NCBI RefSeq assembly: GCF_041438805.1
Contig: NZ_CP109190.1
Coordinates: 2,170,001 to 2,234,000 of the forward strand
Direction of reading: 5' to 3'
Length of the DNA: 64,000 bases
Origin: Streptomyces sp. NBC_01707
Lineage (GTDB): Bacteria; Actinomycetota; Actinomycetes; Streptomycetales; Streptomycetaceae
Below are positions 10,489-29,960 of the stretch, piece by piece (the first letter of the stretch is position 1; every line of letters begins with the position of its first letter). Under the pieces are notes generated by a model that saw only the letters and a program-made list of their open reading frames with translations, had not been told where the DNA came from and searched no databases. A program made the translations under genes and the position numbers.

Positions 10489-12774
10489 TCAGACCGTCGC
10501 CACCTCCACGGTCCCCGCTCCCTGCCCCGTCGCCCCGGTCTCCTCCACGATCACGCGGTACGGACGGTCCGTCCCCTCGGCCGTGACCCACGTCGAGCCC
10601 GAGGCGCTGTCCCGCACGACCCGGAAGACCGCCGCAGCGGTGCCCGTCAGGTCCACCGACGTGACGACCGTGTCGGTCGTCGAGGTCGCCGGGCCGAAAA
10701 CCCGCAACGTCAGACCGTCCAGCCAGTCGCCGTCCGGGCGCTGGTCGTCCGCGCCCCACGGGAGTACCGCGCCGGGACGGACCAGGAGCGGAAGGCTGTC
10801 GTAGCCGTGCGTCTCGTGGCGCCAGGCCGGTCCGGTGACCGATTCGCCGGTCAGGAGGTGGGTCCAGGTGCCTTCGGGGACGTAGTACTCGACCTGGCCG
10901 TCCTCCGTGAAGACGGGCGCCACCAGCAGGTCCGGGCCGAGCATGTACTGGCGGTCCAGCATCCGGGTGGTCGGGTCGGCGGGGAACTCCAGCAGCATCG
11001 GCCGCATCATCGGGATGCCCGTGCGGTGGGCCTCGGCCGCCACCCCGTACAGGTACGGCATGAGGCGGTGCTTGAGGAGGGTGAACTTCCGGGCCACGTC
11101 CACGGCCTCGTCGCCGAACGCCCAGGGCACGCGGTACGACACGTTGCCGTGCAGCCGGCTGTGCGAGGAGAGCAGGCCGAAGGCGAGCCACCGCTTGAAC
11201 ACCGCGGGGTCGGGGGTGCCCTCGAAACCGCCGATGTCATGGCTCCAGAAACCGAAGCCGGACAGCGACAGCGACAGACCACCGCGCAGCGACTCCGCCA
11301 TCGCGGTGAACGAAGCGAAGCAGTCACCGCCCCAGTGGACCGGGAACTGCTGGCCGCCTGCCGTCGCCGACCTGGCGAAGAGCACCGCTTCGCCGTGTCC
11401 GCGCTCCTTCTCCAGGAGCTCGAAGACGGTGCGGTTGTAGATCTGCGCGTAGTAGTTGTGCATCCGCTCCGGGTCGGAGCCGTCGTGCCAGACGACATCC
11501 GTCGGCACCCGCTCGCCGAAGTCCGTCTTGAAACAGTCGACGCCCTGGTCGAGCAGGACCCGCAGCTTGGCGTTGTACCACTCGCGGGCGGCCGGGTTGG
11601 TGAAGTCGACGAGTGCCATGCCGGGCTGCCACAGATCCCACTGCCAGATGTCGCCGCCGGGACGGCGCACCAGGTAGCCGTGCTCGGCGCCCTCCGCGAA
11701 GAGCGGCGACTTCTGGGCGATGTACGGGTTGATCCACATGCTGATGCGCAGGCCGCGTTCCTTGAGCCTGGCCAGCATGCCGGCCGGGTCGGGGAAGACG
11801 TCCGGATCCCACTGGAAGTCCGACCACTGGTACTCGCGCATCCAGAAGCAGTCGAAATGGAAGACCGACAGCGGGATGTCCCGCTCCGCCATGCCGTCGA
11901 CGAACGAGCTGACGGTCTCCTCGTCGTAGGACGTGCAGAAGGAGGTGGTCAGCCAGAGGCCGAACGACCAGGCCGGAGGCAGCGCGGGCCGGCCGGTGAG
12001 TGCGGTGTAGCGGGCGAGGATGTCCTTCGGCGTCGGTCCGGCGACGATGTAGTACTCCAGCGACTGGTCCTCGACGCTGAACTGCACCTGACCGACCGAC
12101 TCCGAGCCGATCTCGAAGGACACCTTGCCGGGGTGGTTGACGAAGACGCCGTAGCCGCGCGAGGAGAGGTAGAACGGGATGTTCTTGTAGGCCTGTTCGC
12201 TGCTGGTCCCGCCGTCCGCCTGCCAGATGTCGACGGTCTGGCCGTTCTTGACGTACGGGGTGAAGCGCTCGCCGAGTCCGTAGACGTTCTCGCCGACGTC
12301 CAGGGCGAGTTGGGCGATCATGTGGTGTGCCCCGTCAGGGGTGGTGGCGAAGGCGGTGCCCTTGCTGTCCACCGCCGTCAGGCGGCTGCCCCGGGCGTCG
12401 AGGAACGTCATGCCCCACGGGCCGTCACCGTTCATGCGCAACGTCAGCGGGCCGCTGGTCAGTTCGGTTGCCGCGCCGTCCCGGCGGGCGCGGGCCGCGG
12501 CGGTCGTGGTGTCGAGTCCGGGGAACTCGAAGTCCGGTCCGTGGTTGACCTTGCCGGCGTGATGGGTGGTGCGTACGCCGATGATCCCTTCGGCCGGGGA
12601 GAAACAATCGACGGTGATGAGAGGGGTGTTGAGGGTGTCGCCGCGCTCGTGCACCTGCTTGACCGCGGCGTAGGCGGTGAACCGGTCGGCGTCGACCCGC
12701 AGGTCGCGGACCTCGGTCGCGTAGCAGGCGCGGACGCCCTCTCGCATCAGCCAGAAGCCGTCGGTGAACTTCAT
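10489..12774 (-). CDS. GH31 alpha-xylosidase (YicI type), cytoplasmic
   Basis: Removes alpha-1,6-linked xylose from the non-reducing end of xyloglucan oligosaccharides. The 761-residue protein has no signal peptide and aligns by eye with E. coli YicI along its length. The GH31 nucleophile is Asp418 in FKTDFGE and the acid/base is Asp484 in VHWGGDCFASF; both lie two residues after the YicI positions 416 and 482. The family segment HFDCFWMREYQWSDFQWD, which marks the xylose-specific subgroup, is also present. AAGGAG lies 5 bases before the ATG. It is 61 bp downstream of the GH3 gene on the same strand, so the two form an operon that probably starts at the operator region near 15.8-16.1 kb. Confidence 0.93.
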   Translation of the reverse strand: MKFTDGFWLMREGVRACYATEVRDLRVDADRFTAYAAVKQVHERGDTLNTPLITVDCFSPAEGIIGVRTTHHAGKVNHGPDFEFPGLDTTTAAARARRDGAATELTSGPLTLRMNGDGPWGMTFLDARGSRLTAVDSKGTAFATTPDGAHHMIAQLALDVGENVYGLGERFTPYVKNGQTVDIWQADGGTSSEQAYKNIPFYLSSRGYGVFVNHPGKVSFEIGSESVGQVQFSVEDQSLEYYIVAGPTPKDILARYTALTGRPALPPAWSFGLWLTTSFCTSYDEETVSSFVDGMAERDIPLSVFHFDCFWMREYQWSDFQWDPDVFPDPAGMLARLKERGLRISMWINPYIAQKSPLFAEGAEHGYLVRRPGGDIWQWDLWQPGMALVDFTNPAAREWYNAKLRVLLDQGVDCFKTDFGERVPTDVVWHDGSDPERMHNYYAQIYNRTVFELLEKERGHGEAVLFARSATAGGQQFPVHWGGDCFASFTAMAESLRGGLSLSLSGFGFWSHDIGGFEGTPDPAVFKRWLAFGLLSSHSRLHGNVSYRVPWAFGDEAVDVARKFTLLKHRLMPYLYGVAAEAHRTGIPMMRPMLLEFPADPTTRMLDRQYMLGPDLLVAPVFTEDGQVEYYVPEGTWTHLLTGESVTGPAWRHETHGYDSLPLLVRPGAVLPWGADDQRPDGDWLDGLTLRVFGPATSTTDTVVTSVDLTGTAAAVFRVVRDSASGSTWVTAEGTDRPYRVIVEETGATGQGAGTVEVATV

Positions 12775-12835
12775 GAGGACTCCTTGCCGGGGGCAACTGG
12801 AGGGAGGTGGGAGTCAGGACGTGGGTACGGCGGGG

Positions 12836-15721
12836 TCACTCGGCCGCTCCTGTGAAGGTGATTCGGGCCAGACGCACCGTGCCCCGCAGCATGACCTGTA
12901 CGTCGCGCACGCCGGAGGCGGTCAGCGGCGTCTCGTGGCCGCGGTAGTCGTAGGGGCCGTCGGTGGCGGGGATGTCCACGGTTGTCGTACGGCCTTCGAC
13001 CGTGATCTCCACCGAGCCCTCCCCCGCCGCGGACACCTCGACGGTGCGGGAACCGGCCGCGAAGTCGCAGCTACGGAAGAGGAGTTCGTTCCCGGGTGCG
13101 GTGGCGGTGACGGCGTCGCCGTCCGTCTTCGTGCGGTCGACGATCTCGGTGCCGAGCTGCTCGTCGTAGTCGGCCGCTTCGAGTCCGTGGTACAGGACGG
13201 GGCGGGGACCGGACCGTTCGCCGTCGACCGTGACCACGGTGGTGAGCCTGATGTCCGTGGCGGAGGCTCCGGCCCGGACTTCGTACGCCCCGGGTTCGAC
13301 GGTCCAGCGGCCGTGCGCCACGTCCCAGTGGCCGAGTTCGGTCACCGGGACGGCGAACTCGATGCGCTGCCCGGCACCCGGCGCGAGGTGCAGGCGTCGG
13401 TGGCCCACGAGCTGACGCAGGGGCCTGACGACGGACGGTGCCAGGGCTCGCACGTAGAGCTGGGCCACCTCGTCGGCGGCAACGACGCCCGAGTTGGTGA
13501 CGGTCACCGACACGCGCAGCCGGTCTCCGTCACGCTCCGCCGTCAGCCCGGTGTACGTGAACGCGCTGTACGACAGTCCGTGGCCGAACGGGTAGAGCGG
13601 CGTGCCCTCGTAGTAGAGGTACGTCTGCCGTGAGCCGATGATGTCGTAGTCGAGCAGACCGGGAAGCTCCGCGTCGGAGGTGTACCAGGTCTGCGGGAGC
13701 CGGCCGGCCGGGGAGACGTCGCCGGACAGGATCCGGGCGAGCGCGGTCCCGGCTGCCTGACCGCCGTGCGCGGTCCAGAGCAGGGCGGGAAGCGCGGCCG
13801 CGGCGTCGGTGAGCGCGTACGGGTAGGCGGAGGTGACCGCCAGCACGGTGCGTGGGTTCGCGGCGTGTGCGGCGCGCCAGATGCGTTCCTGGTGGACGGG
13901 CAGGTCGAGGGTGGTGCGGTCCTCGGTCTCGCGGCCGTTGATGTGCGGGTCGTTGCCGACGACGACGATCACGGTGTCGGCGGCCGCGGCCGCGCGGGCG
14001 ACGGCGTCCTCGCCGCGCTCGACGACCTCGATCTCGAAGACGGTCGCGGCCGGTCCGGCGTCCGCCACCCCGGCGTGTCCGGAATCTTTCTCGTCCACCC
14101 CGGCAACCTTTACGCCGTCGGCGGCAACCGAGACGTACCCACCCGTTCCGATGTGCACAAGGCGGTGCCCCCCGGCGTGACCTTCCACCTTCTCCCAGCG
14201 GAACGTCTCCTGGACGATCCAGCCGCCGGGTTCGTCCGCGGACGCGCGTACGTACCCGTCCTCGGCGACCGACAGATAGCGGCCGTCGGGGTCCCGCAGG
14301 GTGAGCACACCGTTGCCCCAGTCGACGAGTGCCAGCTCGGACGGGCTGTCGCCGCACGTCAGCGGCGGAAGGTCGGTGCGGCCGGTGAGGAGCGCCGGGT
14401 CGAGGGCGCCTTCCGCGCCCTGGGTTCCGGTGCAGGCGTCGGTGTCGGGGATCTGCAGCCAGCCCGCTGCGCACTTCAGGCGGACCAGGTCGGCGCCCTC
14501 CGCGAAGGTCACCCGGTCCGCGCCGAACCGGCTCCGCACTCCGTCGAGCGGGGTGGACCGGTGGATCAGCGTGCCGCTGTACCAGTCGAGCTTGCAGGCG
14601 TCGGCGAGCAGGCCGACGACCGCGATGGTCCCGGGCGCCCCGGGGTCGAGCGGCAGCAGACCGTCGTTCTTCAGCAGGACCACGGCCTGTTCGGCGGCCT
14701 CCTGGGCGAGCGCCCGGTGTTCGGCCGTGTCGAACGCGGTGGTGTCCGCGTGCGGGTCGAGTCCGGGGTCGAACTCCCCCAGCGAGTAGCGCAGTTCCAG
14801 CAGGCGGCGGACTGCGGTGTCGATGTCGATCTCGTCGAGGAGGCCCTGCTCCAGTGCGCGGCGGATACGGCCGGTCATGACGGTGGAGTCCTGGCCGTGG
14901 TCGGTGAAGCTGTCGACTCCGGCCTTCAGCGCGGCGGCCGTGGCCTCTTCGTGGGTGTCGAAGTAGTGCTCGGAGTCGACCAGGTTGGACGGCGCCCCGG
15001 CGTCGGAGCAGACCACGAGCGACTGCTCGGTCCAGCGTCGCAATTGCTGGGACAGGAGGGGCGAGACATGGTTGGGCCGCCCGTTGACCAGGTTGTAGGC
15101 GGGCATGACCCCTGCCACCGCGCCCGCCCGCACGGCCTGGCGGAACGCCCGGAGGTCGTACTCGTGCAGCACCCTCGGACGGACCGACGACGAGGAGGTG
15201 TCCCGGTCGGTCTCGTTGTTGTGGGCGAGCCAGTGCTTGAGCACCGGCGCGGTGCGCCAGTAGTGCGGGTGGTCGCCGCGCAGTCCGCGGGTGTAGGCGA
15301 CGGCGATCGCGGAGGTCAGGGCGGCGTCCTCCGCGTACCCCTCCTCACCGCGCCCCCACAGCGGATGACGCAGCAGATTCACGGTCGGGGCCCAGACGTT
15401 GAGGCCGACCCGGTCGTCCTTGGCCCGCTTGGCCCGGACCTCGTTGCCGACCGCCTCGCCGACCCGGCGCACCAGGTCGTCGTTCCAGGTGGCACCCAGG
15501 CCGACGGCCTGCGGGAAGACGGTCGCGGGGCCCATCCAGGCCACGCCGTGCAGTCCCTCCTGACCGGTGCGGAAGGCACCGATCCCGAGCCGGTCGACCG
15601 CGGGTGCGAACTGGTGCAGCATCGCTATCCGCTCGTCGAGGGTGAGCCGCTGAAGCAGATCGTCGATGCGCCGGGCGAAGGGCAGTTGCGGGTCGCGGAA
15701 GGGCTGCGGATGTTCCGTCAC
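12836..15721 (-). CDS. GH3 beta-glucosidase with inserted fascin-like domain
   Basis: A 961-residue glycoside hydrolase family 3 enzyme without a signal peptide, expected to remove beta-linked glucose (or xylose) from imported oligosaccharides. The N-terminal barrel covers about residues 1-310, with the nucleophile Asp240 in VVCSDAGA. The second domain starts near 340 (VVLLKNDGLLPLD) and is interrupted at about 420-570 by a beta-trefoil segment (GVLTLRDPDGRYLSVAEDG; TGGYVSVAADGVKV) that looks like a fascin domain. The GH3 domain then resumes, followed by a fibronectin-III-like region (LTVSVTV-type, about 715-790) and a CBM6-like C-terminus. The start is GTG 15721 with an AGGGGA sequence upstream. 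It is divergent from the importer operon and shares its operators. Confidence 0.9.
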   Translation of the reverse strand: MTEHPQPFRDPQLPFARRIDDLLQRLTLDERIAMLHQFAPAVDRLGIGAFRTGQEGLHGVAWMGPATVFPQAVGLGATWNDDLVRRVGEAVGNEVRAKRAKDDRVGLNVWAPTVNLLRHPLWGRGEEGYAEDAALTSAIAVAYTRGLRGDHPHYWRTAPVLKHWLAHNNETDRDTSSSSVRPRVLHEYDLRAFRQAVRAGAVAGVMPAYNLVNGRPNHVSPLLSQQLRRWTEQSLVVCSDAGAPSNLVDSEHYFDTHEEATAAALKAGVDSFTDHGQDSTVMTGRIRRALEQGLLDEIDIDTAVRRLLELRYSLGEFDPGLDPHADTTAFDTAEHRALAQEAAEQAVVLLKNDGLLPLDPGAPGTIAVVGLLADACKLDWYSGTLIHRSTPLDGVRSRFGADRVTFAEGADLVRLKCAAGWLQIPDTDACTGTQGAEGALDPALLTGRTDLPPLTCGDSPSELALVDWGNGVLTLRDPDGRYLSVAEDGYVRASADEPGGWIVQETFRWEKVEGHAGGHRLVHIGTGGYVSVAADGVKVAGVDEKDSGHAGVADAGPAATVFEIEVVERGEDAVARAAAAADTVIVVVGNDPHINGRETEDRTTLDLPVHQERIWRAAHAANPRTVLAVTSAYPYALTDAAAALPALLWTAHGGQAAGTALARILSGDVSPAGRLPQTWYTSDAELPGLLDYDIIGSRQTYLYYEGTPLYPFGHGLSYSAFTYTGLTAERDGDRLRVSVTVTNSGVVAADEVAQLYVRALAPSVVRPLRQLVGHRRLHLAPGAGQRIEFAVPVTELGHWDVAHGRWTVEPGAYEVRAGASATDIRLTTVVTVDGERSGPRPVLYHGLEAADYDEQLGTEIVDRTKTDGDAVTATAPGNELLFRSCDFAAGSRTVEVSAAGEGSVEITVEGRTTTVDIPATDGPYDYRGHETPLTASGVRDVQVMLRGTVRLARITFTGAAE

Positions 15722-15800
15722 GTGCGGGTCCCCTTGGAGAGGTGGGAGGTTTTGCGAGGTCCGGGCCTGTTGAGGATCCGTCCAGGCCTCGGAAGATCTT

Positions 15801-15814
15801 TCGAAGCGCTTCGA
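15801..15814. promoter_or_regulatory. LacI-type operator, copy 1
   Basis: A perfect 14-bp palindrome, TCGAAGCGCTTCGA, 80 bp upstream of the GH3 start. The central GCGC with an A/T-flanked symmetric arm is typical for LacI-family operators. The same sequence recurs at 15973 and 30051. Confidence 0.85.
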
Positions 15815-15972: not shown

Positions 15973-15986
15973 TCGAAGCGCTTCGA
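15973..15986. promoter_or_regulatory. LacI-type operator, copy 2
   Basis: Second exact copy of TCGAAGCGCTTCGA, 225 bp upstream of the solute-binding protein gene and oriented to control the plus-strand operon. Confidence 0.85.
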
Positions 15987-16211: not shown

Positions 16212-17882
16212 ATGACGCCGAATTCCTCCCCCGCCTCCACCACCCCGAGCCGACGGAGCTTTCTCGCTTCGAGCGCTGTGGCCGCGGTCGCCGTGGCCGG
16301 CGGGGTGCCGCTGCTCGCCGCCTGCGGCGGCGGCTCCGGTTCCGGGAGCAAGGAAGGTACGACGACGGGCAAGGCGCTCAAGAAGGTCCTGCCGAACTAC
16401 GTCCCGTCGAACCTGGTCCAGCCCGACGTGGCGGGCGTCAACGGCTCGAGCCCCGGTTTCACCGAGCTGCCCGACCCGCTGGCCACCTCGGTGAAGTCCG
16501 CGCCGGGCAAGGGTTCCGCGTTCCGGATCATGACTCCGCTGTGGGGCACCGTCCCGAAGAAGAACAACCCGTACTACACGGCCGTGAACAAGGCGGTCGG
16601 CGCGACGCTGAACTTCGACCCGCAGGACGGCAACACCTACCAGGACAAGATCGGCGCGGTCCTCGCCGGCTCCGACATACCGGACGTCGTGACCATCCCC
16701 GGCTGGAACATGCAGGGCCAGATCCGCAACGCGATCACCGCCAAGTTCGCCGACCTGAGCCCGTACCTGGCCGGTGACGCGATCAAGAAGTACCGGAACC
16801 TGGCCAACATCCCGACCGGTGCCTGGCAGTACTCCGTCTTCGGCGGCAAGCTGCGCGGTCTTCCCATGCCGTCGCCGATCCTCGGCAACGCGATCTTCTA
16901 CCGCAAGGACCTGATCGGCTCCGGCGCCGTCCCGGGCAGCGCCGCCGATCTGCTGGCCTTCGGCAAGGAGTACACGGACGCGAAGAAGAAGGTCTGGGCC
17001 TTCGACGACCTGTGGACCTGCATCCAGAAGATCTTCGGGCTGCTGCCCGACGCCCCGCACTACTGGCAGCTGGAGAACGGCAAGCTCGTCCACAAGATCG
17101 AGACGCAGGAGTACCGCGAGGCACTGGCCTTCGCCCGCAAACTCCATGACGGCGGTTACGTCCACCCGGACGCCGAGGCCGGCAAGGACGCCGACTCCAA
17201 GATCCGCTTCACCGGCGGACGCGTCCTGATGTACAACGACGGCACCGGCGGCTGGAAGGGCATGGTCACCGAGCAGGCCGCCGCCAACCCGAAGTTCGAC
17301 ATGCAGGCGCTGGACTTCTTCAACCAGGACGGCGGAAAGCCGGTCCTGTGGCAGGACGACCCCGCCGGCATCTTCACCTTCCTCAGCAAGACGCTGCCGA
17401 AGGCGAAGATCGAGGAATTCCTCGGTATCGCCGACTTCGCCGCGGCGCCGTACGGCACCAAGGAGTTCATGCTCACCAACTACGGCGTGCAGGACACCCA
17501 CTACACGATCAAGGACGGGGTGCCGACCTTCACCCCGCAGGGCATCCAGGAGGCCCAGCCCTCCACGTTCCTGTTCCTCGCCTCGCCTCCGCACACCATC
17601 GCCTTCCCCGACGAGCCGCAACTGGTGAAGGACTACGCGGGATGGATGGCCCGGCAGGCCCCGAACGTCAAGAAGCCGCTCTTCTTCGGCATGCAGATCG
17701 TCGAACCGCAGCGGTACGCCTCCCTGTACACGCCCTTCGACGACCTGCAGAAGGACATCCGTCGCGGCCGCAAGAAGGTCAGCGACGTCGACGCCGCGGT
17801 CACGACGTGGAAGAACAGCGGCGGCGACAAGTTGCGCGACTGGTACCAGGGCATTCTCGACAAGAACGGCTCCGGCAACTGA
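16212..17882 (+). CDS. ABC importer solute-binding lipoprotein (CUT1 type)
   Basis: Captures the sugar substrate at the outer face of the membrane. The 556-residue lipoprotein has a Tat-like twin arginine (SRRSFLASSAVAAVAVAGG) and a lipobox with LLAAC, so Cys is near residue 37. The mature part has the two-lobe fold of extracellular solute-binding family 1, of the large LipO/YtcQ subtype, with conserved WNMQGQ, LPMPSPILGNAIFYRKDL and YTDAKKKVWAFDDLW stretches. Its size and subtype fit ligands such as branched plant oligosaccharides. The gene opens the operon with two permeases and three hydrolases and is preceded by the shared operators. Xyloglucan oligosaccharides as ligand are inferred from neighbours. 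Confidence 0.88.
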   Translation: MTPNSSPASTTPSRRSFLASSAVAAVAVAGGVPLLAACGGGSGSGSKEGTTTGKALKKVLPNYVPSNLVQPDVAGVNGSSPGFTELPDPLATSVKSAPGKGSAFRIMTPLWGTVPKKNNPYYTAVNKAVGATLNFDPQDGNTYQDKIGAVLAGSDIPDVVTIPGWNMQGQIRNAITAKFADLSPYLAGDAIKKYRNLANIPTGAWQYSVFGGKLRGLPMPSPILGNAIFYRKDLIGSGAVPGSAADLLAFGKEYTDAKKKVWAFDDLWTCIQKIFGLLPDAPHYWQLENGKLVHKIETQEYREALAFARKLHDGGYVHPDAEAGKDADSKIRFTGGRVLMYNDGTGGWKGMVTEQAAANPKFDMQALDFFNQDGGKPVLWQDDPAGIFTFLSKTLPKAKIEEFLGIADFAAAPYGTKEFMLTNYGVQDTHYTIKDGVPTFTPQGIQEAQPSTFLFLASPPHTIAFPDEPQLVKDYAGWMARQAPNVKKPLFFGMQIVEPQRYASLYTPFDDLQKDIRRGRKKVSDVDAAVTTWKNSGGDKLRDWYQGILDKNGSGN

Positions 17883-17984: not shown

Positions 17985-19076
17985 GTGAAGCCACGGGCCA
18001 CGGTTGCGACCGAGACGGACCGAGCGGCCAACCGGCCGACGGGCCCGCTCGGCGACGGCGGGAGCGAGGACAGCGGAGGCGGAGACAGCAACGGCACCGC
18101 AGGCGTCAGGGACAGCGGCAGGAAGCCCCCGGCCGCGGACAGCACCCCACCGGTGGCGGGCGGCATCACCTGGCGCCTGCGCCTGCGCCGGGACCGCACG
18201 CTGGTCCTGATGACACTGCCCGCCATCGCTCTGCTGCTGATCTTCAACTACATCCCGCTGCTCGGGAACATCGTGGCCTTCCAGGACTACGACGTGTACG
18301 ACCTGGGCATCACCGGCAGCCCCTTCGTGGGCTTCGACAACTTCACCCGGATATTCGAGGACTACCGCTTCTGGCAAGTCCTCATCAACACGCTGGTCAT
18401 CTTCCTGACCCAGCTGCTCCTCTTCTTCCCCATCCCGATCGCCATCGCCCTGCTGCTCAACACGATCATGAGTGCGCGGGTACGGGCCTGGGTGCAGGCC
18501 GTCGTCTATCTGCCGCACTTCTTCTCCTGGGTGCTCGTCGTCACCGTCTTCCAGCAGATGTTCGGCGGGGCCGGCCTGGTCGCGCAGTGGATGCGCGAAC
18601 ACGGCCATGAGGGCTTCGACCTGATGACCAATGCGAGCTTCTTCAAGTTCCTGGTCACCGCACAGGCCGTGTGGAAGGACGCCGGGTGGGGCGTGATCGT
18701 CTTCCTCGCCGCACTCGCCGCCGTCAACACCGATCTGTACGAGGCGGCGGCCGTGGACGGTGCGGGGCGCTGGCGCCGCATGTGGCACGTCACTCTGCCC
18801 GCGCTGCGTCCGGTCATCGCGCTGCTGCTCGTCCTTCGGGTCGGCAGTGCGCTCAACCTCGACTTCGAGCAGATCCTGCTCCAGCGCGACCAGGTGGGTC
18901 CGGGCGCTTCCGAAATCCTCGACACCTACATCTGGTGGACGGGCATCAAGACCGGCGACTTCGGCTACGCGGCCGCCGCCGGAATCTTCAAGGGACTGTT
19001 CAGCGTCGCCATGGTGCTGGGTGCGAACAAGGTCGCTCACATGCTGGGCGAGCAGGGGGTGTACTCCAAGAAATGA
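17985..19076 (+). CDS. ABC importer permease, LplB type
   Basis: Integral membrane subunit of the CUT1 importer, 363 residues. A long disordered N-terminus (about 60 residues rich in Gly/Ser/Asp) precedes six predicted membrane helices, beginning with LVLMTLPAIALLLIFNYIPLLGNIVAF. The coupling EAA motif is EAAAVDGAGRWRRMWHVTLPALRPV. NYIPLLGNIVAFQDY and the SPFVGFDNFTRIFED segment are typical of the LplB/YteP branch. The start is GTG 17985 with GGGGAG upstream. The stop overlaps the next permease start as ATGA. No ATPase gene is linked, so the shared ATPase MsiK is the probable energiser. Confidence 0.9.
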   Translation: MKPRATVATETDRAANRPTGPLGDGGSEDSGGGDSNGTAGVRDSGRKPPAADSTPPVAGGITWRLRLRRDRTLVLMTLPAIALLLIFNYIPLLGNIVAFQDYDVYDLGITGSPFVGFDNFTRIFEDYRFWQVLINTLVIFLTQLLLFFPIPIAIALLLNTIMSARVRAWVQAVVYLPHFFSWVLVVTVFQQMFGGAGLVAQWMREHGHEGFDLMTNASFFKFLVTAQAVWKDAGWGVIVFLAALAAVNTDLYEAAAVDGAGRWRRMWHVTLPALRPVIALLLVLRVGSALNLDFEQILLQRDQVGPGASEILDTYIWWTGIKTGDFGYAAAAGIFKGLFSVAMVLGANKVAHMLGEQGVYSKK

Positions 19077-20056: not shown

Positions 20057-20132
20057 CACGCACCGCACGCTCCGGACCTCACCACTTCCTCCGCTCTCTC
20101 CCTCTCCTTTCCTCCACCGGAAGGTGTTCGCC

Positions 20133-22403: not shown

Positions 22404-22417
22404 GGAGCGTGAAGTCC

Positions 22418-24394
22418 ATGCCGTCCCTGCGCGACGCAGCCCGTGGCCGCATCCTCTTCGGCGGCGACTACAACCCCGAGCAGTGGCCCGAGGAGGTGTG
22501 GGAGGACGATGTACGGCTGATGAAGGACGCCGGGGTCAACTCCGTCACCCTCGGGGTGTTCTCCTGGGCGAAGATCGAACCACGCCCGGGCGCCCGGGAA
22601 TTCGGCTGGCTGGATCGTCTGATGGACCTGATGCACACCCATGGCATCGGGGTCGTGCTCGCCACACCGACCGCTTCCCCGCCGCCGTGGATGGGGGCGG
22701 AGCACCCCGAGACGCTGCCGCGTGGCGAGGACGGCTCGGTCGTCTGGTACGGATCACGGCAGCAGTTCTGCGCCAGTTCGCCGGTCTACCGGCGTTACGC
22801 GGCGTCCCTCACCGAGGACCTGGCGGCGCGGTACGCCGATCACCCGGCGCTGACCGTGTGGCACATCAACAACGAGTACTGCACGCACTGCTGGTGCGAC
22901 GGGACCGCCGCGCACCTCCGCCGGTGGCTCCACGCTCGATACGCCACCGTCGAGGCACTCAACGAGGCCTGGGGAACGGCCTTCTGGAGCCAGCGCTACG
23001 AAACGTGGGAGCAGATCCTGCCCCCACGCAAGGCGCAGTACATGAAGAACCCGACGCAGGTGCTGGACTTCAAGCGGTTCACGTCCGACGCGCTGATGGA
23101 GTGCTATCTGGCCGAGCGCGACATCGTCGCCCGGCACACCCCTCAGATCCCGGTGACCACCAACTTCATGCCGTTGTGGTCGGGGCAGGACGCATGGGCG
23201 TGGTCGGCCCAGGAGGACATCGTCTCCGTCGACGTCTATCCCGACCCGAAGGACCCGCAGGCTGCCCAGTACAACGCGATGCTCGCCGACATGACACGCT
23301 CCCAGGCGGCCGGGCCATGGATGCTGATGGAGCAGGCCGCGGGGCCGGTGAACTGGCGGGGTGTGAACCATCCGAAGCCGGCCGGCCTCAACCGGCTCTG
23401 GTCGCTCCAGTCGGTCGCGCGCGGCGCCGACGCCGTCTGCTACTTCCAGTGGCGGCAGTCCCGCCAGGGAGCGGAGAAGTTCCACTCCGGCATGCTCACG
23501 CACGCGGGCGAGAACGGCCGCACGTTCCGGGAGGTCAAGCAGCTCGGCGCCGAACTGGCCACGATCGGGGCGGCGGTGAGCGGTGCGGACGTGCCGTCCG
23601 AGGTGGCGATCCTGCACGACTGGGACTCCTGGTGGGCGGGCGCCCAGGAGGGCAGGCCGTCCAGGCTCCTCGACTACACGGAAATCGTGCAGAGCTGGCA
23701 CCGGGCCCTGTGGGAATCAGGCATCAGCACGGAATTCGCCCGCCCCGAGGGCGACTTGACCGGGTTCCGGATGGTGGCCGTACCGCAGCTGTATCTGCTG
23801 ACGGATGCCGCGATCGACAACCTGGTCGCCTACGTACGGGGTGGCGGGACTCTCGTCTGCGGCTTCTTCAGCGGGATCGCCGACGCGGACGACCGGATCA
23901 GGCCGGGCGGCATGGACGTGCGGATGCGTGAGCTGTGCGGCATCCGTACGCTCCACGAGTGGTGGCCGCTCGACGCGGACACCACGGTGGAGTGCGACGG
24001 CTTCCGGGCCTCGGTCTGGTCGGAGGAGCTGGAAGCGGATCCGGGCGCGGAGGTCGTCTCCGCGTACCGGGGCGGCGAGCTGGACGGGCTGCCCGCCGTA
24101 GTCCGCAACGACCGTGCGTACTACGTCTCGACGCTGCCCGAACCGGAGGCGCTGCGCGCCCTGCTCGGCCGGGTGGCGGCCGAGGCCGGGACGGCGCCCG
24201 TGCTGACCGGGCTGCCCGAGGGTGTGGAGGCCGTCCGCCGCGGCGATCTGCTGTTCCTGCTGCACCACGGCCGGAGCAGCGTCACCGTACCGGTGCCCGG
24301 TGCGCAGGTGGATCTGCTGACCGGGGCGGCGGTCAACGGCTCCGTGGAGCTGGGCCGCTACGGCGTGGCCGTGCTGCGCGGCGCAACCCTGTGA
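22418..24394 (+). CDS. GH42 beta-galactosidase, cytoplasmic
   Basis: Removes the beta-1,2-linked galactose of xyloglucan side chains. The 658-residue protein has no signal peptide. GH42 hallmarks are ILFGGDYNPEQWPEEVWEDDV, the acid/base Glu153 in WHINNEYC, the nucleophile Glu305 in MLMEQAAGPVNW, and the zinc-type cysteine cluster CTHCWC right after the acid/base. A trimerisation domain and a short C-terminal beta domain follow (DLLTGAAVNGSVELGRYGVAVL). ATG 22418 has GAGGAG about 10 bases upstream; an in-frame ATG at 22400 overlaps the GH74 stop and is also possible. Its 3' end overlaps the GH95 start as GTGA, so the two are coupled. Confidence 0.93.
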   Translation: MPSLRDAARGRILFGGDYNPEQWPEEVWEDDVRLMKDAGVNSVTLGVFSWAKIEPRPGAREFGWLDRLMDLMHTHGIGVVLATPTASPPPWMGAEHPETLPRGEDGSVVWYGSRQQFCASSPVYRRYAASLTEDLAARYADHPALTVWHINNEYCTHCWCDGTAAHLRRWLHARYATVEALNEAWGTAFWSQRYETWEQILPPRKAQYMKNPTQVLDFKRFTSDALMECYLAERDIVARHTPQIPVTTNFMPLWSGQDAWAWSAQEDIVSVDVYPDPKDPQAAQYNAMLADMTRSQAAGPWMLMEQAAGPVNWRGVNHPKPAGLNRLWSLQSVARGADAVCYFQWRQSRQGAEKFHSGMLTHAGENGRTFREVKQLGAELATIGAAVSGADVPSEVAILHDWDSWWAGAQEGRPSRLLDYTEIVQSWHRALWESGISTEFARPEGDLTGFRMVAVPQLYLLTDAAIDNLVAYVRGGGTLVCGFFSGIADADDRIRPGGMDVRMRELCGIRTLHEWWPLDADTTVECDGFRASVWSEELEADPGAEVVSAYRGGELDGLPAVVRNDRAYYVSTLPEPEALRALLGRVAAEAGTAPVLTGLPEGVEAVRRGDLLFLLHHGRSSVTVPVPGAQVDLLTGAAVNGSVELGRYGVAVLRGATL

Positions 24395-26700
24395 CCGCGG
24401 CAGGTACGGAGGCCGGCGCCCCGGGCCGCGACGGCACGTGGGAGCCACACCCCGCCGCCCGCTGGGAAGACGCCTTCCTCGGCGGCAACGGCCGGCACGG
24501 AGCCATGGTGTACGGAGATCCGGCCGACGACCGGGTCGTCGTCAACCATCACACCCTCGTCCGCCCCAACGGCAGCGAGCACGCCGGACCGCCCCTGCTC
24601 GCAGACCGGCTGGAGCAGCTTCAGGACGCGCTCCTCGCCGGGGACACGACGGCGGCCGAACAGTTCGGGGCGGAACACCCGCTGCTGTGGGTCCAGCCGT
24701 TCCACCCCGCCTTCCAGACCCGGGTCCGCCGCCTGCCGTCGACCGTCGACCGTCGCGCGGGGACGGCCGGCTACCGCCGCTCCGTCGACTTCGCCACCGG
24801 GGAGATCTGCGCCTCACACAAGGACTGGCGGAGCCGGGTCTTCGTCTCACGGGCCGACGACGTCATCGTCCAGTGCATCACCGGGTTCGGGCTCGCCGTG
24901 GAGCTCACCCTGGACCACGCACTGCCGGGTGCGCCCCCGCGTCTCGCCGTCGGCCGCAGCACCGCACTGACGGCCGACGGCGCCCGGCTGGCCCTGCGGG
25001 CCGGCTACCCGTCCAGTGATCTGGCCTACACGGGCGTCACCGTGGCCCGGGTGGACCGGGGATCCGTGACCGTGTCGGGCGAGGGCATCCGTATCGACGG
25101 CGCGCGGACTCTGCTCCTGCTGACCCGGGTACGGCGTCATACGGGCGACCTGGACCTCGCCGAGGAATGGGAAGCCCTGCCGTACGCCGACTACGAGACG
25201 CTGCTCGCCCGGCATCGGCCCCTGCACCGCACCGCCTACGAGCGCGCCACCCTCACCCTGCATGCCGAGGCGAAGGAACGCGCCTTGCCGGGAAGTGAGT
25301 TGATACGTCGCCCCGAGAGCCCCGCGCTCCTGGAGCGGCTGTTCGCAGCGGGCCGCTACCACCTGCTCTCCGCCGCCGGGGTGCTGCCGCCACGGCTGAC
25401 CGGTCTCTGGACCGGCGACTGGGACACCGCCTGGTCCGGTGCGTTCACCACCAATGCCAATCTCAATCTCCAGATCGCTTCGGCCGCCGCCGCGGCACTG
25501 CCGGAGGTGTCCGAAGCCCATGCCGGTCTGGTCCGCGGCCAGCTGGCCGACTGGCGGGACAACGCCCGCGCGATCTTCGGCGCCCGGGGCATCGTCGCCC
25601 CGACCCACACGGACGGCGAGTCCGGCCACAACCACCACTTCCAGCGCGCCTATCCGCACCATCTGTGGACCGCGGGTGCGGACTGGCTGCTGCAGCCCCT
25701 TCTGGAGCACGCCGAGACCACCGGCGTGACGGACCGCTGGCTGACCGACGCGCTCACCGAAGTGGCGGAGTTCTACGAGGACTTCCTCACCCGGAACGCC
25801 TCGGACGGCACGCTCGCCATCGTCCCCTCGTACTCACCGGAGAACCGTCCGGCCAACGCGAGCTGGGGGACGATCAACGCCACCATGGACATCGCGGCGT
25901 CCCGTCACGCCCTGGCCACCGCAGCCGGGCGCTCCCCCGGCCATCCGGCCGCTGGCCGCTGGCGCGCGCTCGCCGACCGGCTCCCCCGGTACCACGTCAA
26001 CGAGGACGGCGCGCTCGCCGAATGGGCCTGGCCGGGCCTGCGGGAGACGTACGACCACCGGCACCTCAGTCATCTCTACCCGGTGTGGCCGCTTGGCGTG
26101 ATCAACCCGTACGACACCCCTGATCTCGCGGACGCCGCACACCGCGCACTGGAGCTGCGCGGCGCGGAGAACGACTCCGCGCACGGCCATCTGCACCACG
26201 CCCTGATCGCTGCACGGCTGCACGACGGTACGCGGGCCCTGGACGCACTGAACGCCGTGCTGGCGGGCGACTTCTTCCACCGCTCGCTGATGTCCTCGCA
26301 CTATCCGTCCCGCGATGTCTACAACGCGGACGCCGCCCATGCACTGCCCGCGGCGGTCATCGAGATGCTCGTCCAGTCCACCCCGGACCGGCTGGTGCTC
26401 CTGCCCGCGCTCCCCAGCACGTTTCCGTCCGGCGAACTGCGCGGGGTGCGCACCAGGTTCGGCGCCCGCGTGGATCTGTCCTGGTACGAGGACGGTCACG
26501 CCACGGCCGTCCTGCACCCCACCCGTGACGCCCGTGTCGATGTACGCACGGGCGGCGGGCTCACGCTCACCGACACCGCGACACGGCGCTGCACCGACAC
26601 CCCTGCCGAGCCCCCCACCGAGACCTCCGCCGGAACTCCCGTAGCTCTGCTGGACCTGACGGCCGGCGTGGACCGCGTCCTCACTCTGAGGCAGCGGTAG
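24391..26700 (+). CDS. GH95-like alpha-L-fucosidase/galactosidase, cytoplasmic
   Basis: Expected to take the terminal alpha-1,2-L-fucose (or L-galactose) off xyloglucan side chains. The 769-residue protein starts at GTG 24391 overlapping the GH42 stop. Family features are WEDAFLGGNGRHGAMVYGDPADDRVVVNHHTL at the N-terminus (positions 16-47), an (alpha/alpha)6 barrel with LTGLWTGDWDTAWSGAFTTNANLNLQ, GTLAIVPSYSPEN, and a late RDVYNADAAHALPAAVIEML. The usual GH95 motif around the first catalytic residues (N-x-N, then E-M-N-Y-W) appears here as NANLNLQ, so this is a divergent member. No signal peptide is present. Specificity for fucose is inferred from the locus. Confidence 0.82.
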   Translation: MTAAGTEAGAPGRDGTWEPHPAARWEDAFLGGNGRHGAMVYGDPADDRVVVNHHTLVRPNGSEHAGPPLLADRLEQLQDALLAGDTTAAEQFGAEHPLLWVQPFHPAFQTRVRRLPSTVDRRAGTAGYRRSVDFATGEICASHKDWRSRVFVSRADDVIVQCITGFGLAVELTLDHALPGAPPRLAVGRSTALTADGARLALRAGYPSSDLAYTGVTVARVDRGSVTVSGEGIRIDGARTLLLLTRVRRHTGDLDLAEEWEALPYADYETLLARHRPLHRTAYERATLTLHAEAKERALPGSELIRRPESPALLERLFAAGRYHLLSAAGVLPPRLTGLWTGDWDTAWSGAFTTNANLNLQIASAAAAALPEVSEAHAGLVRGQLADWRDNARAIFGARGIVAPTHTDGESGHNHHFQRAYPHHLWTAGADWLLQPLLEHAETTGVTDRWLTDALTEVAEFYEDFLTRNASDGTLAIVPSYSPENRPANASWGTINATMDIAASRHALATAAGRSPGHPAAGRWRALADRLPRYHVNEDGALAEWAWPGLRETYDHRHLSHLYPVWPLGVINPYDTPDLADAAHRALELRGAENDSAHGHLHHALIAARLHDGTRALDALNAVLAGDFFHRSLMSSHYPSRDVYNADAAHALPAAVIEMLVQSTPDRLVLLPALPSTFPSGELRGVRTRFGARVDLSWYEDGHATAVLHPTRDARVDVRTGGGLTLTDTATRRCTDTPAEPPTETSAGTPVALLDLTAGVDRVLTLRQR

Positions 26701-26764
26701 CGCATCCCCCACCCCGACTCCCCGCACCGTGACTCCTCCTCGGCGTGAACGCCGGGGCTTCTCG
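26701..26764 (-). ncRNA. Candidate omega RNA / right-end region of the tnpB element
   Basis: In TnpB elements the guide scaffold RNA covers the 3' end of tnpB and the right end of the element. The 64 bp after the stop contain a conserved-looking hairpin on the minus strand (AGCCCCGGCGTTCACGCCGA). The guide itself would be the sequence just beyond the element end. The RNA limits are inferred from the family. Confidence 0.4.
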
Positions 26765-28110
26765 CTAAGCCGTGTCGGCGTTGCGACGGACCAGCCCGGC
26801 CCGTAGTACGTTCAGGGCGCCCACCGTGTCGGCGTGCGCGGTGTGGCCGCACGCGGTGCAGTGGAACTTCTCCTGTGTGGGCCGGTTCTCCTTCGCGGTG
26901 TGCGCGCATTCGGGACACCGCCGGGAGGTGTTGCGGGGGTCCACGGCCATCACTTCCCGTCCGGCACTCTCAGCCTTGGCATTCAGGATCGCGAGGAACA
27001 CCCCCCATCCGGCATCTGTGATGGAACGGTTGAGTCCGGCCTTGGCGGCGGCCCCGTTGGGCAGGAAACTGCTCGGCTTCTCGGGGTCGGGTTTCGGTGC
27101 GGGGGTTTTGCTCATGTTGCGGATCTTGAGGTCTTCGTGCGCGATGAAGTCGTGCTCACGGACCAGGTGGAGGGCGGTCTTGTGCGCGTGGTCGAGCCGC
27201 TGACGGCGAACCTTGCCGTGCAGGGACACGACCTTCTCCGCCGCACGCTGGTGGTTGCGGGTACGGTCCTTCGCCTTGCGCCGCGGGAACCGGGACAGGG
27301 CCTGCTGCGCGGCCTGAAGCTTCGCAGCGGCCTTGCGGGCGTGCCTGGGGTTGGGCACGAACCCGCCGCCCGAGTCGGCGAGGAAGTTCGCGATGCCCAG
27401 GTCGATGCCGACCATGCTGCCCGTTGCCGGGAGCGGTTCGGGCTGGTCCTGTTCGGCGGTCAGCACGACGAACCACTTGCGGCCTTCACGCTTGACCGAG
27501 ACGGTCTTGACCTTGCCGGCCACGGGCCGGTGCTGGTTGACCTTGACGTGTCCGATGCCCTGGAAGCGGACGCGGGTGACCCGGTCGTGCGGGGTGGAGT
27601 CCCATCGGACCCCGTCGCCGTCCTTCGGGAACTCCACCGTGTCGAACCAGTTCACCCCACGAAAACGCGGATACCCCGGCGCCAGACCGGCTGCGACCCG
27701 GCGGAAGAACGCGGCGAACGCCTTGTCCAGACGGCGCAGCGTGGCCTGCTGCGAGGAGAACGACCAACGCCCCTGACGCTCCGGATCGAACGCCCTGATG
27801 TCCTTGAGCTGGGCGGACTGCTGCCCGTACCTGATGCTCGTCTTCGAGGGATGACGGTAGGCATCGCGCCGTTCCTCTAACGCCCCGTTGTACAGGGAGC
27901 AATGATCGCGCAGCATCTCACCGAGCGCGACCGACTGCCGGGCGGTGGGCCGCATCAGAAACTTGTACGCACGAATCATCCAACCCACCCCCCTTTGCGG
28001 TCAGTACGGTCAACATAGCTGGCGCCACTGACAACGCAGGGCACTCCGGCGCTCCGCGCCTCCGGGCCGAGGATCGCATTCCCGCCCGGCCGGAAGGCCG
28101 GGATTCCCTG
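26720..28110 (-). mobile_element. IS200/IS605-group element of the TnpB-only (IS1341) type
   Basis: A single tnpB gene flanked by small hairpins. The right end, just after the tnpB stop on the complement, holds a CGGCGT-TC-ACGCCG hairpin at about 26741-26754. The left end holds a CCCGGCC-TTCC-GGCCGGG hairpin at about 28086-28103. No tnpA gene is present, so mobility would need a TnpA in trans. Exact ends are uncertain to tens of bases because this group makes no target duplication. The element separates the GH95 gene from the GH12 gene. Confidence 0.7.
26765..27979 (-). CDS. tnpB: TnpB RNA-guided nuclease of an IS1341-type element
   Basis: A 404-residue TnpB, the ancestor of Cas12, which uses an omega RNA from the element end to cut DNA. 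The domains are an N-terminal HTH (RAYKFLMRPTARQSVALGEML), a split RuvC with Asp in VGIDLGIANF and Glu in AHEDLKIRNM, a zinc ribbon (CPECAH and CTACGH), and the last RuvC Asp in HADTVGALNVL. All three catalytic acids are present, so the nuclease looks intact. ATG 27979 has AAGGGG upstream; GTG 27988 is an alternative. The gene faces away from GH12 and toward the GH95 gene. Confidence 0.9.
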   Translation of the reverse strand: MIRAYKFLMRPTARQSVALGEMLRDHCSLYNGALEERRDAYRHPSKTSIRYGQQSAQLKDIRAFDPERQGRWSFSSQQATLRRLDKAFAAFFRRVAAGLAPGYPRFRGVNWFDTVEFPKDGDGVRWDSTPHDRVTRVRFQGIGHVKVNQHRPVAGKVKTVSVKREGRKWFVVLTAEQDQPEPLPATGSMVGIDLGIANFLADSGGGFVPNPRHARKAAAKLQAAQQALSRFPRRKAKDRTRNHQRAAEKVVSLHGKVRRQRLDHAHKTALHLVREHDFIAHEDLKIRNMSKTPAPKPDPEKPSSFLPNGAAAKAGLNRSITDAGWGVFLAILNAKAESAGREVMAVDPRNTSRRCPECAHTAKENRPTQEKFHCTACGHTAHADTVGALNVLRAGLVRRNADTA

Positions 28111-28122
28111 CGAAGATCAGCG

Positions 28123-28830
28123 ATGGCACGACGCATCCTCAGCAGGTTCGTACTGGCGCCGGCGGCCGCGGTCGCCGCCCTGATCGGCTTCGCCGCCGCA
28201 CCTGCCCAGGCCGCGATCTGGTCCTCCTCGGACCAGTGGGGCAACTACACCACCAGCGACGGATACACCCTCTACAACAACATCTGGGGATCCGGCGCGG
28301 GCTCCCAGACCATCTGGGTCAACTCCTCCAGCAACTGGGGGGTCTGGGCCAACCACCCGGACACCGGCGGCATCAAGTCGTACCCCAACGCCAAGAAGGT
28401 CGTCGGCAGGTCCATCACCTCGCTGACGTCGCTCGCCAGCAGCTACAACGTCACCGTCCCGTCGACCGGTGACTACAACACGTCGTACGACATCTGGGAC
28501 ACCGACTACGACTACGAAGTGATGCTCTGGGTCAACTACAACGGCGATGTCGGCGCGCTCGGCACCCCGCAGGGAACGGCGACACTCGGCGGCCACACCT
28601 GGACCGTCTACAAGGGCGACAACGGGTCCAACCAGGTCTTCTCGTTCCTGCGCACCTCGGACTCCTCCTCGGGCACGGTGAACATCCTGCCGATCCTGAA
28701 GTGGATCAAGGACACCAAGGGCTGGTGGGGCAACGAGACCATCGGTGACGTCCAGTTCGGCTACGAGATCACTTCGTCACCCGGCGGCCTGGACTTCACG
28801 ACGAACGGGTTCAGCGTCTCGTCGAGCTGA
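28123..28830 (+). CDS. GH12 endoglucanase, secreted (probable xyloglucanase)
   Basis: An endo-beta-1,4-glucanase of 235 residues; in Streptomyces loci of this kind GH12 enzymes often act on xyloglucan. A signal peptide (residues 1-30, ending APAQAA) precedes a single GH12 jelly roll. The two catalytic glutamates are Glu132 in DYEVMLWVNY (nucleophile) and Glu215 in FGYEITSS (acid/base). The aromatic cleft stretch SNWGVWANHPDTGGIKSYPN is clear. There is no binding module. The ribosome binding site before ATG 28123 is poor. The promoter region is shortened by the tnpB element, whose left hairpin is about 20 bp away, so expression may have changed after the insertion. Confidence 0.92.
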   Translation: MARRILSRFVLAPAAAVAALIGFAAAPAQAAIWSSSDQWGNYTTSDGYTLYNNIWGSGAGSQTIWVNSSSNWGVWANHPDTGGIKSYPNAKKVVGRSITSLTSLASSYNVTVPSTGDYNTSYDIWDTDYDYEVMLWVNYNGDVGALGTPQGTATLGGHTWTVYKGDNGSNQVFSFLRTSDSSSGTVNILPILKWIKDTKGWWGNETIGDVQFGYEITSSPGGLDFTTNGFSVSSS

Positions 28831-29895: not shown

Positions 29896-29960
29896 TCGGC
29901 TCTCCATCACAGGACGACGGCGGATTCCGGCACAGGCGCTGACACGTGCCGACAGGGTTG

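What the first reader, a model, noticed from the sequence alone, without database searches (positions are those of the whole stretch)
10489..28830. Complete xyloglucan degradation and import set, partly in one operon
The window holds one enzyme for each bond class in fucogalacto-xyloglucan: GH74 and GH12 (secreted, backbone), GH95-like (fucose), GH42 (galactose), GH31 YicI-type (xylose) and GH3 (glucose), plus a CUT1 importer. Export signals are present only on GH74 and GH12. So polymer cutting is outside and side-chain trimming inside, a selfish-uptake logic better known from Bacteroides xyloglucan loci but with ABC import instead of SusCD. The gene order GH42-GH95 with coupled starts places the two terminal-sugar enzymes in fixed ratio. 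Xylose processing genes are 8 kb away.
Basis: partly seen in the sequence, partly recalled or inferred. Interest (0 to 1): 0.85.

Follow-up and report, generated by a model that had tools for sequence, protein, structure and literature searches.

The report
Streptomyces xyloglucan cut-import-digest locus
A soil Streptomyces carries a compact gene set that probably cuts a plant cell-wall sugar polymer outside the cell, imports the pieces and finishes digesting them inside, a strategy already known from other Gram-positive bacteria, here with a predicted repressor and an importer that seems to be swapped as a block between strains.

Summary
The gene set is real, and homology supports a xyloglucan (XyG) locus: divergent operons GH3-GH31 and SBP-permease-permease-GH74-GH42-GH95, with GH12 and LacI downstream. 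The strategy (exported endo-xyloglucanase, CUT1 ABC import, cytoplasmic trimming) is known from Ruminiclostridium cellulolyticum and proposed for Anaerocellum bescii, so this is a Streptomyces member of a known kind. The GH95 is divergent, its fucosidase activity unproven, and GH3 could be glucosidase or xylosidase. Binding, induction and growth were not tested.

The parts
10489..12774 (-). GH31 alpha-xylosidase, YicI type, cytoplasmic
   Evidence: Pfam GH31; NCBIfam NF007940 alpha-xylosidase 1217 bits, cut-off 606; YicI structures E 2.6e-282 with shared motifs
12836..15721 (-). GH3 beta-glucosidase or beta-xylosidase with Fn3-like and CBM6 domains, cytoplasmic; 61 bp before GH31 on the same strand
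   Evidence: Pfam; no export signal; no NCBIfam equivalog reached its cut-off, the best three being xylosidase models; solved relatives are both glucosidases and xylosidases
15801..15814 (.). predicted LacI operator TCGAAGCGCTTCGA (GH3 side of divergent promoter region)
15973..15986 (.). predicted LacI operator TCGAAGCGCTTCGA (SBP side)
16212..17882 (+). large solute-binding lipoprotein, CUT1, AlgQ-like (cluster G type)
   Evidence: PF13416; profile hit to AlgQ1, E 2e-4; Foldseek first 13 places are AlgQ1/AlgQ2 and glycosaminoglycan SBPs, but on a low-confidence model with TM-scores of 0.41-0.49
17985..19076 (+). CUT1 permease 1
   Evidence: PF00528
19073..20056 (+). CUT1 permease 2, ATGA overlap with permease 1
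   Evidence: PF00528, 25.6 bits against a cut-off of 26.4, in the longer ORF 18671-20056; overlap
20124..22403 (+). GH74 endo-xyloglucanase with Tat-like export signal
   Evidence: solved GH74 xyloglucanases, best E 1.4e-133; TAT_signal 21.5 bits, cut-off 22.7; only GH74 match in the genome
22400..24394 (+). GH42 beta-galactosidase, cytoplasmic, ATGA overlap with GH74
   Evidence: PF02449/PF08532/PF08533 in the longer ORF 22034-24394; overlap
24391..26700 (+). divergent GH95 (putative alpha-L-fucosidase or related), cytoplasmic, GTGA overlap with GH42
   Evidence: PF22124, PF14498, PF21307 in the longer ORF 23935-26700; 7kmq E 2e-54; motif conservation
26729..28122 (-). tnpA-less IS200/IS605-type element (tnpB 26765-27988) at the GH12 start
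   Evidence: Pfam OrfB/TNB; three other long copies in the same genome have a tnpA-like frame; not seen at this place in relatives
28123..28830 (+). GH12 endo-xyloglucanase, exported
   Evidence: PF01670; best solved relative is a GH12 reported as a xyloglucan hydrolase, E 7e-46 against 7e-21 for the next
28885..29910 (-). LacI-family regulator, predicted repressor of the locus
   Evidence: PF00356, PF13377; orthologues visible in relatives are mostly 72-94% identical although their SBP can be near 50% (part of the output cut)
29961..29974 (.). predicted operator (1 mismatch) before lacI
30051..30064 (.). predicted operator (exact) before lacI

Best explanation
A LacI-controlled xyloglucan utilisation locus. 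GH74 (and GH12 where it is expressed) is exported and cuts the glucan backbone into short oligosaccharides. The lipoprotein SBP and two CUT1 permeases, powered by a shared MalK/MsiK-type ATPase encoded elsewhere, import them with side chains on. Inside, GH95 probably removes a terminal sugar, GH42 removes galactose, and GH31 and GH3 then alternate from the non-reducing end to give xylose and glucose. Without inducer, LacI sits on paired TCGAAGCGCTTCGA sites and shuts the two divergent operons and its own gene. Shown by computation: gene content, order, export-type N-termini, motif conservation, operator conservation. Inferred: substrate, import size, order of trimming (by analogy with R. cellulolyticum), inducer, repression, ATPase partner. 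In this genome GH12 is probably weakly or not expressed, because a TnpB element separates it from the operon promoter and lies where relatives have a ribosome-binding sequence.
For: Families and export-type N-termini. GH31 is YicI-type. GH74 aligns with solved xyloglucanases. The GH12 is far closer to a reported xyloglucan hydrolase than to cellulases. 42 of 98 fetched relative loci carry a different GH31, and the one examined (L141) has alpha-xylosidase MeXyl31 as best solved relative, E 1.6e-207; two distant alpha-xylosidases in one locus point to the substrate. The SBP is cluster-G-like, as is the xyloglucan SBP Athe_2052 (PMC12710961). R. cellulolyticum uses GH42, GH31 and GH3 in the cytoplasm and a CUT1 importer for XyG (PMC4780118). 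Paired operators in 97 of 97 loci with at least 800 bp upstream (98 fetched; 96 with both copies exact, 1 with one mismatch in one copy) and exact in 31 of 31 named loci, an overlapping set; 57 of 59 lacI genes (both sets together) have a site with at most 1 mismatch within 300 bp. Four of six newly described Streptomyces isolates grew on tamarind XyG (PMC11475409, passages). MalK-type OB domains in 3 places elsewhere in the genome.
Against: No binding, induction or growth data for this strain. The SBP has no close solved relative by single sequence and its model is weak (mean pLDDT 59; TM-scores below 0.5 to the best PDB matches). A shorter sugar SBP scored slightly better than AlgQ1 in the profile search. 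The GH95 has lost parts of the usual motif surroundings. The best NCBIfam models for the GH3 are beta-xylosidases, all below cut-off. 36 of 91 loci lack an intact local GH74 and 26 lack GH95, so the full set is not required to keep the locus. Other genome sites with the same palindrome lie by a GH43 and by an SBP in a locus with an acetyl-xylan esterase and its own LacI-like gene, so other LacI proteins may read it too. The count of loose matches in the window (7 at up to 3 mismatches) is not unusual by itself.
Confidence: 0.85

Rival explanations
1. The locus serves another plant glycan (cello-oligosaccharides, pectic side chains, xylan-derived or mixed beta-glucans), and XyG is a side substrate.
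For: GH3, GH42 and GH12 families are broad; no NCBIfam family was hit by GH42, GH95 or SBP; the best models for the GH3 are beta-xylosidases, below cut-off; GH42 is listed under pectin in a Streptomyces CAZyme table (PMC11475409, passages).
Against: An alpha-xylosidase-type GH31 (either of two types) beside a GH74 in one regulated unit is hard to explain otherwise; the GH12 is closest to a xyloglucan hydrolase.
Confidence: 0.1
2. The GH95 is not a fucosidase but removes another terminal sugar (for example L-galactose) from XyG.
For: Best solved relative only E 2e-54; the sequence around the putative catalytic Asp is VYNADAAHAL where the solved GH95s shown have FQIDGNFG or similar; the first Asn of the N-x-N pair is N in 47 and D in 43 of 90 loci.
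Against: The second Asn, the SPEN motif and the Asp are kept in 90 of 90, 90 of 90 and 88 of 88 loci examined (overlapping sets); it travels with GH42 in the operon. Which residues are catalytic is recalled, not from a call.
Confidence: 0.3
3. Some carriers are scavengers: they keep the importer and inner enzymes while the secreted enzymes decay; the uncoupled GH12 here would be a step that way.
For: Of 17 genomes whose fetched locus lacks both intact enzymes, 3 have no full-length GH74 match (G043, NBC_01669, A0958) and two of these, NBC_01669 and A0958, have no GH12 match either; GH12 is uncoupled here.
Against: 14 of the 17 have another GH74 match over at least 85% of the query, in at least two cases (70-73% identical) probably from a second locus of this kind; cytoplasmic GH95 is missing often too; GH5, GH9, GH16 and GH44 xyloglucanases were not searched; drafts may be incomplete; the window's own GH74 is intact and a second GH12-like DNA match exists in its genome that was not examined.
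Confidence: 0.2

Closest known systems
Xyloglucan-oligosaccharide locus of Ruminiclostridium cellulolyticum (PMC4780118; abstract, sections 8 and 9 and passages read)
   Same: Extracellular GH74 and other xyloglucanases; CUT1 SBP plus two permeases; cytoplasmic GH42, GH31, GH3; alpha-fucosidase genes drawn in some clusters (figure legend).
   Different: Cellulosomal enzymes and a two-component regulator there; here GH74 in the operon, GH12 next to it, and a LacI regulator with conserved operators.
Athe_2052-2054 of Anaerocellum bescii (PMC12710961; abstract, first part of Results, Discussion read)
   Same: Large cluster-G SBP, two permeases, shared ATPase elsewhere, GH31 nearby; the authors say it could be considered selfish uptake.
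   Different: GH74 lies in a multidomain cellulase elsewhere; the putative GH42 lies elsewhere and the putative fucosidase only near the locus.
Bacteroidetes XyGUL (mostly recalled; mentioned in the papers read, own papers seen as listings or references only)
   Same: Endo-xyloglucanase at the surface, side-chain enzymes behind a membrane.
   Different: SusC/SusD there; none among the locus genes here.
CebR regulon of cellulolytic Streptomyces (PMC4898821; passages read)
   Same: LacI-family repressor and a 14-bp palindrome with the same central AGCGCT (TGGGAGCGCTCCCA).
   Different: Different flanks (TCGAAGCGCTTCGA here) and a different regulon.

Membership tests
Gram-positive ABC-type xyloglucan-oligosaccharide utilisation locus | CUT1 SBP and two permeases without an ATPase of their own | tested here: met
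   no ATPase among the locus genes scanned; MalK-type OB domains only elsewhere in the genome
Gram-positive ABC-type xyloglucan-oligosaccharide utilisation locus | Cytoplasmic alpha-xylosidase, beta-galactosidase and beta-glucosidase | tested here: inconclusive
   GH31, GH42 and GH3 present without export signals; GH3 could be glucosidase or xylosidase; activities not tested
Gram-positive ABC-type xyloglucan-oligosaccharide utilisation locus | Exported endo-xyloglucanase | tested here: met
   GH74 and GH12 by family and export-type N-terminus; activity not tested
Gram-positive ABC-type xyloglucan-oligosaccharide utilisation locus | SBP binds XXXG-type oligosaccharides; genes induced by xyloglucan | not testable with these tools
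   needs ITC and RNA-seq
R. cellulolyticum Fig. 12a subtype | Two-component regulator genes in the cluster | tested here: not met
   the genes identified by Pfam between 10489 and 29910 include no sensor kinase; a LacI is present; so it is not filed under this subtype
Bacteroidetes XyGUL | SusC/SusD pair | tested here: not met
   none among the locus genes scanned
YicI-type GH31 alpha-xylosidase | Curated model cut-off and active-site motifs | tested here: met
   1217 bits against 606; DCFWM and FKTDFGER identical to YicI and kept in 44 of 44 and 46 of 46 loci examined; the role of these residues is recalled
GH95 alpha-L-fucosidase | GH95 catalytic domain | tested here: met
   PF22124 212 bits
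GH95 alpha-L-fucosidase | Canonical catalytic surroundings and fucose specificity | tested here: inconclusive
   activity untested
IS200/IS605 element | tnpB with ends shared with other copies | tested here: met
IS200/IS605 element | own tnpA (autonomous) | tested here: not met
   three other long copies in the genome have a tnpA-like frame (judged by eye, no family search); this one does not

The most novel reading that the evidence does not exclude
The Streptomyces xyloglucan locus is a modular unit under one conserved operator code. The three-gene importer cassette and the alpha-xylosidase are exchanged wholesale between lineages, and the secreted 'public' enzymes are often lost or displaced (here by a TnpB element) while the private import-and-trim core and the operators stay. 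Importer type may set which side-chain variants, or whose leftovers, a strain can use.
Probability: 0.35. Interest if true: 0.62.

Novelty: new member of a known kind. Interest (0 to 1): 0.42.

Why it matters
Xyloglucan is a main polymer of growing plant cell walls, and Streptomyces are abundant on roots and litter. A locus with a predicted repressor, an exact operator and a natural series of variants (importer type 1 or 2, alpha-xylosidase type A or B, with or without GH74, GH12 or GH95) gives directly testable predictions about who degrades and who scavenges. A tomato QTL study lists variants in a xyloglucanase and an alpha-xylosidase, apparently of its Streptomyces bin, linked to host loci (PMC9203511, passages only).

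Tried and rejected
Rejected: the second GH31 (38789-41512) as a second alpha-xylosidase of the system; its three best solved matches are one alpha-N-acetylgalactosaminidase and its variants. Not tied in: the second importer region (30188-33449), whose conservation in relatives was not tested. Rejected as general: the scavenger reading, since 14 of 17 genomes whose fetched locus lacks both local secreted enzymes have another near full-length GH74. Outside Streptomyces: of 396 phylum genomes 10 had an SBP match at E <= 1e-100, 8 in the genus (own genome included); around the 2 others the window's enzymes gave no match at E 1e-8 and the palindrome none at up to 2 mismatches in the 20 kb taken. 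Weak: the SBP model (pLDDT 59) supports at most the fold class. Rfam found nothing in the window at gathering scores. I saw no paper on a Streptomyces xyloglucan locus of this kind in the searches, and the palindrome was found in no paper; lists were capped (20 of 39, 15 of 21, 12 of 832), supplements were not searched, and most subscription papers are not held.

Rows dropped before counting: one search lists 100 SBP places at E <= 1e-149 outside G000 (in 97 genomes); 98 were fetched (95 genomes). G120 (starts at a contig start) and G198 (not checked) were left out, and weaker matches were not fetched. Downstream counts use the 91 of 98 loci with at least 11.5 kb after the SBP start. 'Fragment' calls for permease 1 (23 of 91) probably reflect its variable N-terminus. 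The named set (31 loci, 27 with 11.5 kb) was found by SBP similarity, is biased to type-1 importers and overlaps the unnamed set. Part of the printed output was cut; the counts use the saved file. Exchange trees: 42 of 110 usable loci plus the window, 31 plus the window. In one search two rows labelled B (L028, L029) fell on the type-1 importer side, two labelled A (L111, L113) fell with B rows in the enzyme tree, and the program warned of long branches; these four and some other B rows were left out. The groups were named after the trees had been seen, which the AU test does not allow for.
Full report
Place and organism. The window is G000:C1:2170001-2234000 of a 9.9-Mb genome. All 31 named loci found with its SBP are Streptomyces (nearest NBC_01669 96%, NBC_00154 95%, JH14 94%).

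What is there. On the minus strand GH3 (15721 to 12836) is followed after 61 bp by GH31 (12774 to 10489). Divergently on the plus strand run SBP, permease, permease, GH74, GH42 and GH95, with stop-start overlaps at permease/permease, GH74/GH42 and GH42/GH95. A TnpB gene on the minus strand separates GH95 from GH12. LacI follows on the minus strand. A hydropathy check finds export-type N-termini on SBP (with an LAAC lipobox), GH74 and GH12, and none on GH31, GH3, GH42 or GH95.

Specificity clues. The GH31 scores 1217 bits against NCBIfam alpha-xylosidase (cut-off 606) and E 2.6e-282 against YicI, with shared stretches HFDCFWM, CFKTDFGER (one Ser/Thr in 3 of 46 relatives at the first position) and HWGGDC. 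The GH74 aligns along its length with solved xyloglucanases, and its ARTDIGG and GDIG aspartates are kept in 73 of 73 and 71 of 71 loci; that these are the catalytic pair is recalled. Where 4lgn has a double Trp (SWWPDT) the query has NRWAQVDT, with one invariant Trp in 71 of 71; from recalled work on processive GH74 this suggests a less processive enzyme. The GH12 is closest to a GH12 whose paper reports xyloglucan hydrolase activity (E 7e-46; next best 7e-21; PMC7303141, listing only). The GH95 is real but divergent, so 'fucose' is a guess. The GH3 is not settled: solved relatives include glucosidases and xylosidases and its best NCBIfam models are beta-xylosidases, far below cut-off (436 of 1250 bits). 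No solved protein is close to the SBP by single sequence (one irrelevant hit), but its family profile finds AlgQ1 (E 2e-4; a smaller sugar SBP scored 4e-5), and Foldseek on a weak model ranks AlgQ1, AlgQ2 and glycosaminoglycan SBPs in the first 13 places, with TM-scores of 0.41-0.49 to the query length and rmsd above 11 A. The xyloglucan SBP Athe_2052 is described as belonging to the same cluster G (PMC12710961).

Conservation. In a draw of 199 genomes of the genus, own genome included, 107 had an SBP match at E <= 1e-60, some of them paralogues near 30% identity; 98 of 199 (own included) have one at E <= 1e-149. Of 98 fetched loci, 91 reach at least 11.5 kb past the SBP start. Among these GH42 is intact in 81, GH12 in 73, GH95 in 65 and GH74 in 55; the GH74-GH42-GH95-GH12 row is intact in 43. 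GH3 is upstream in 89 of 92. A YicI-type GH31 is seen in 22 of 98 loci and a second type in 42 of 98; in 34 neither was seen, in an uncounted share because the stretch ended. The second type, from L141, has alpha-xylosidase MeXyl31 as best solved relative (E 1.6e-207); second-type enzymes are about 30-33% identical to the first.

Regulation. TCGAAGCGCTTCGA occurs exactly at 15801, 15973 and 30051 and with one mismatch at 29961. The window count at up to 3 mismatches (7) is not unusual (7 of 100 shuffles reach it); the force lies in the exact copies, their places and their conservation. The whole genome holds 6 exact sites and 12 at up to one mismatch, against 4 for the reversed control. Two sites upstream of SBP are present in 97 of 97 loci with at least 800 bp upstream (96 with both exact), though the SBPs themselves fall to about 47% identity. 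Site spacing varies, 109-223 bp, median 171, over 127 loci of both overlapping sets. Before lacI, 57 of 59 loci have at least one site with at most one mismatch. Other exact sites in the genome lie by a GH43, by an SBP in a locus with an acetyl-xylan esterase and its own LacI-like gene, and between a xylose-isomerase-like gene and a second YicI-type GH31 that is 77% identical to the one in the window. The simplest reading is autoregulated repression of both operons by this LacI, with some overlap with other LacI proteins.

The TnpB element. Four long tnpB copies and two fragments exist in the genome; the three other long copies carry a tnpA-like reading frame next to tnpB, this one does not. 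Homology to the other copies runs from 26729 to the GH12 ATG at 28123. Among the 30 best GH12 loci only the window's own has the element, and in 76 loci with GH95 and GH12 on one strand (both sets, overlapping) the gap is 17-209 bp with no such TnpB. The close relative L091 shows the uninterrupted site: the same flanks with a 15-bp stretch bearing a GGAAGG ribosome-binding-type sequence where the window has the element; 65 of the 76 loci have GGAAGG near the GH12 start. In the window a GGAAGG also occurs, but 25 bp before the ATG inside the element end, farther than usual for a ribosome-binding site. So GH12 has lost operon linkage and probably its usual ribosome-binding site; whether it is still expressed is unknown. 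GH74 is the only GH74 match in the genome; a second GH12-like DNA match in it was not examined.

Exchange of parts. Of 15 unnamed loci whose GH42 is at least 78% identical to the window's, eight have the window's importer type (SBP 86-89%) and seven (L144, L157, L164, L168, L172, L174, L178) do not: they keep close flanking enzymes (GH31 86-89%, GH74 80-82%, GH42 79-83%) but have SBP at 50-52%, permease 1 at 60-69% and permease 2 at 68-71%. The importer tree puts the seven with other type-2 importers (SH-aLRT 100), the enzyme tree with the window's clade (100). Forcing either tree to follow the other is rejected (p-AU 4e-7 and 1e-5), with the caveats that the groups were chosen after seeing the trees, that quick trees without bootstrap were used, that long branches were flagged, and that four discordant rows were left out (L028 and L029 fall on the type-1 importer side; L111 and L113 have type-1 importers but enzymes nearer the B rows). 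Those rows suggest still more exchange. A block replacement of the importer is the plain reading.

Loss of secreted enzymes. Ten of 91 unnamed and 7 of 27 named loci lack both intact GH74 and GH12. In those 17 genomes a GH74 match over at least 85% of the query exists in 14, two of them at 70-73% identity and probably second loci of this kind; G043 and A0958 (G394) have no match and NBC_01669 (G392) only fragments. GH12 matches exist in 10 of 17; NBC_01669 and A0958 have none. These two are candidate oligosaccharide scavengers, not proof of a trend. The number of independent losses was not counted.

Known or new. R. cellulolyticum imports XyG oligosaccharides by a CUT1 importer and degrades them with GH42, GH31 and GH3 in the cytoplasm (PMC4780118). 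A. bescii's SBP binds XXXG with a Kd of 14 nM, and the authors use the term selfish uptake (PMC12710961). Four of six new Streptomyces isolates grew on tamarind XyG (PMC11475409, passages). I saw no paper that describes this Streptomyces locus or its palindrome in the held library (lists capped). It is therefore a new member of a known kind; the operator code, the importer exchange and the two alternating alpha-xylosidases are the parts that may be new.

Limits. Everything is sequence inference. Relatives are mostly unnamed and many are drafts, counts depend on contig ends, and the protein homolog database could not be used.

Noticed in passing
38789-41512 +: GH31 with DUF5110 and export-type N-terminus, closest solved relative a GH31 alpha-N-acetylgalactosaminidase; not an obvious part of the XyG system.
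   Followed up: partly
30188-33449 -: A second binding-protein-dependent importer region (one permease confirmed by Pfam) just beyond the lacI operators, with no visible tie to the XyG genes.
   Followed up: no
L088 3661-7550: A second YicI-type GH31 (77% identical to the window's) divergent from a xylose-isomerase-like gene (89% identical over 207 aa to the one at window 1-621), with an exact operator between them.
   Followed up: partly
12836-15721 -: Cytoplasmic-looking GH3 carries a C-terminal CBM6, odd for an enzyme without export signal.
   Followed up: no
L053 about 3290-3300: The IS605-type copy seems to end inside what reads as the tnpA of another copy, a nested insertion (by eye).
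   Followed up: no
L113, L114, L116: In three Streptomyces (71% SBP) the lacI and the type-B alpha-xylosidase sit on the GH3 side of the locus instead of after GH12.
   Followed up: no
L086 7594 and 7737: Two operator-like palindromes (one exact) by a GH43 with a beta-xylosidase C-terminal domain, possibly another regulon member.
   Followed up: partly
36021-38294 -: Cytochrome P450 gene near the locus.
   Followed up: no
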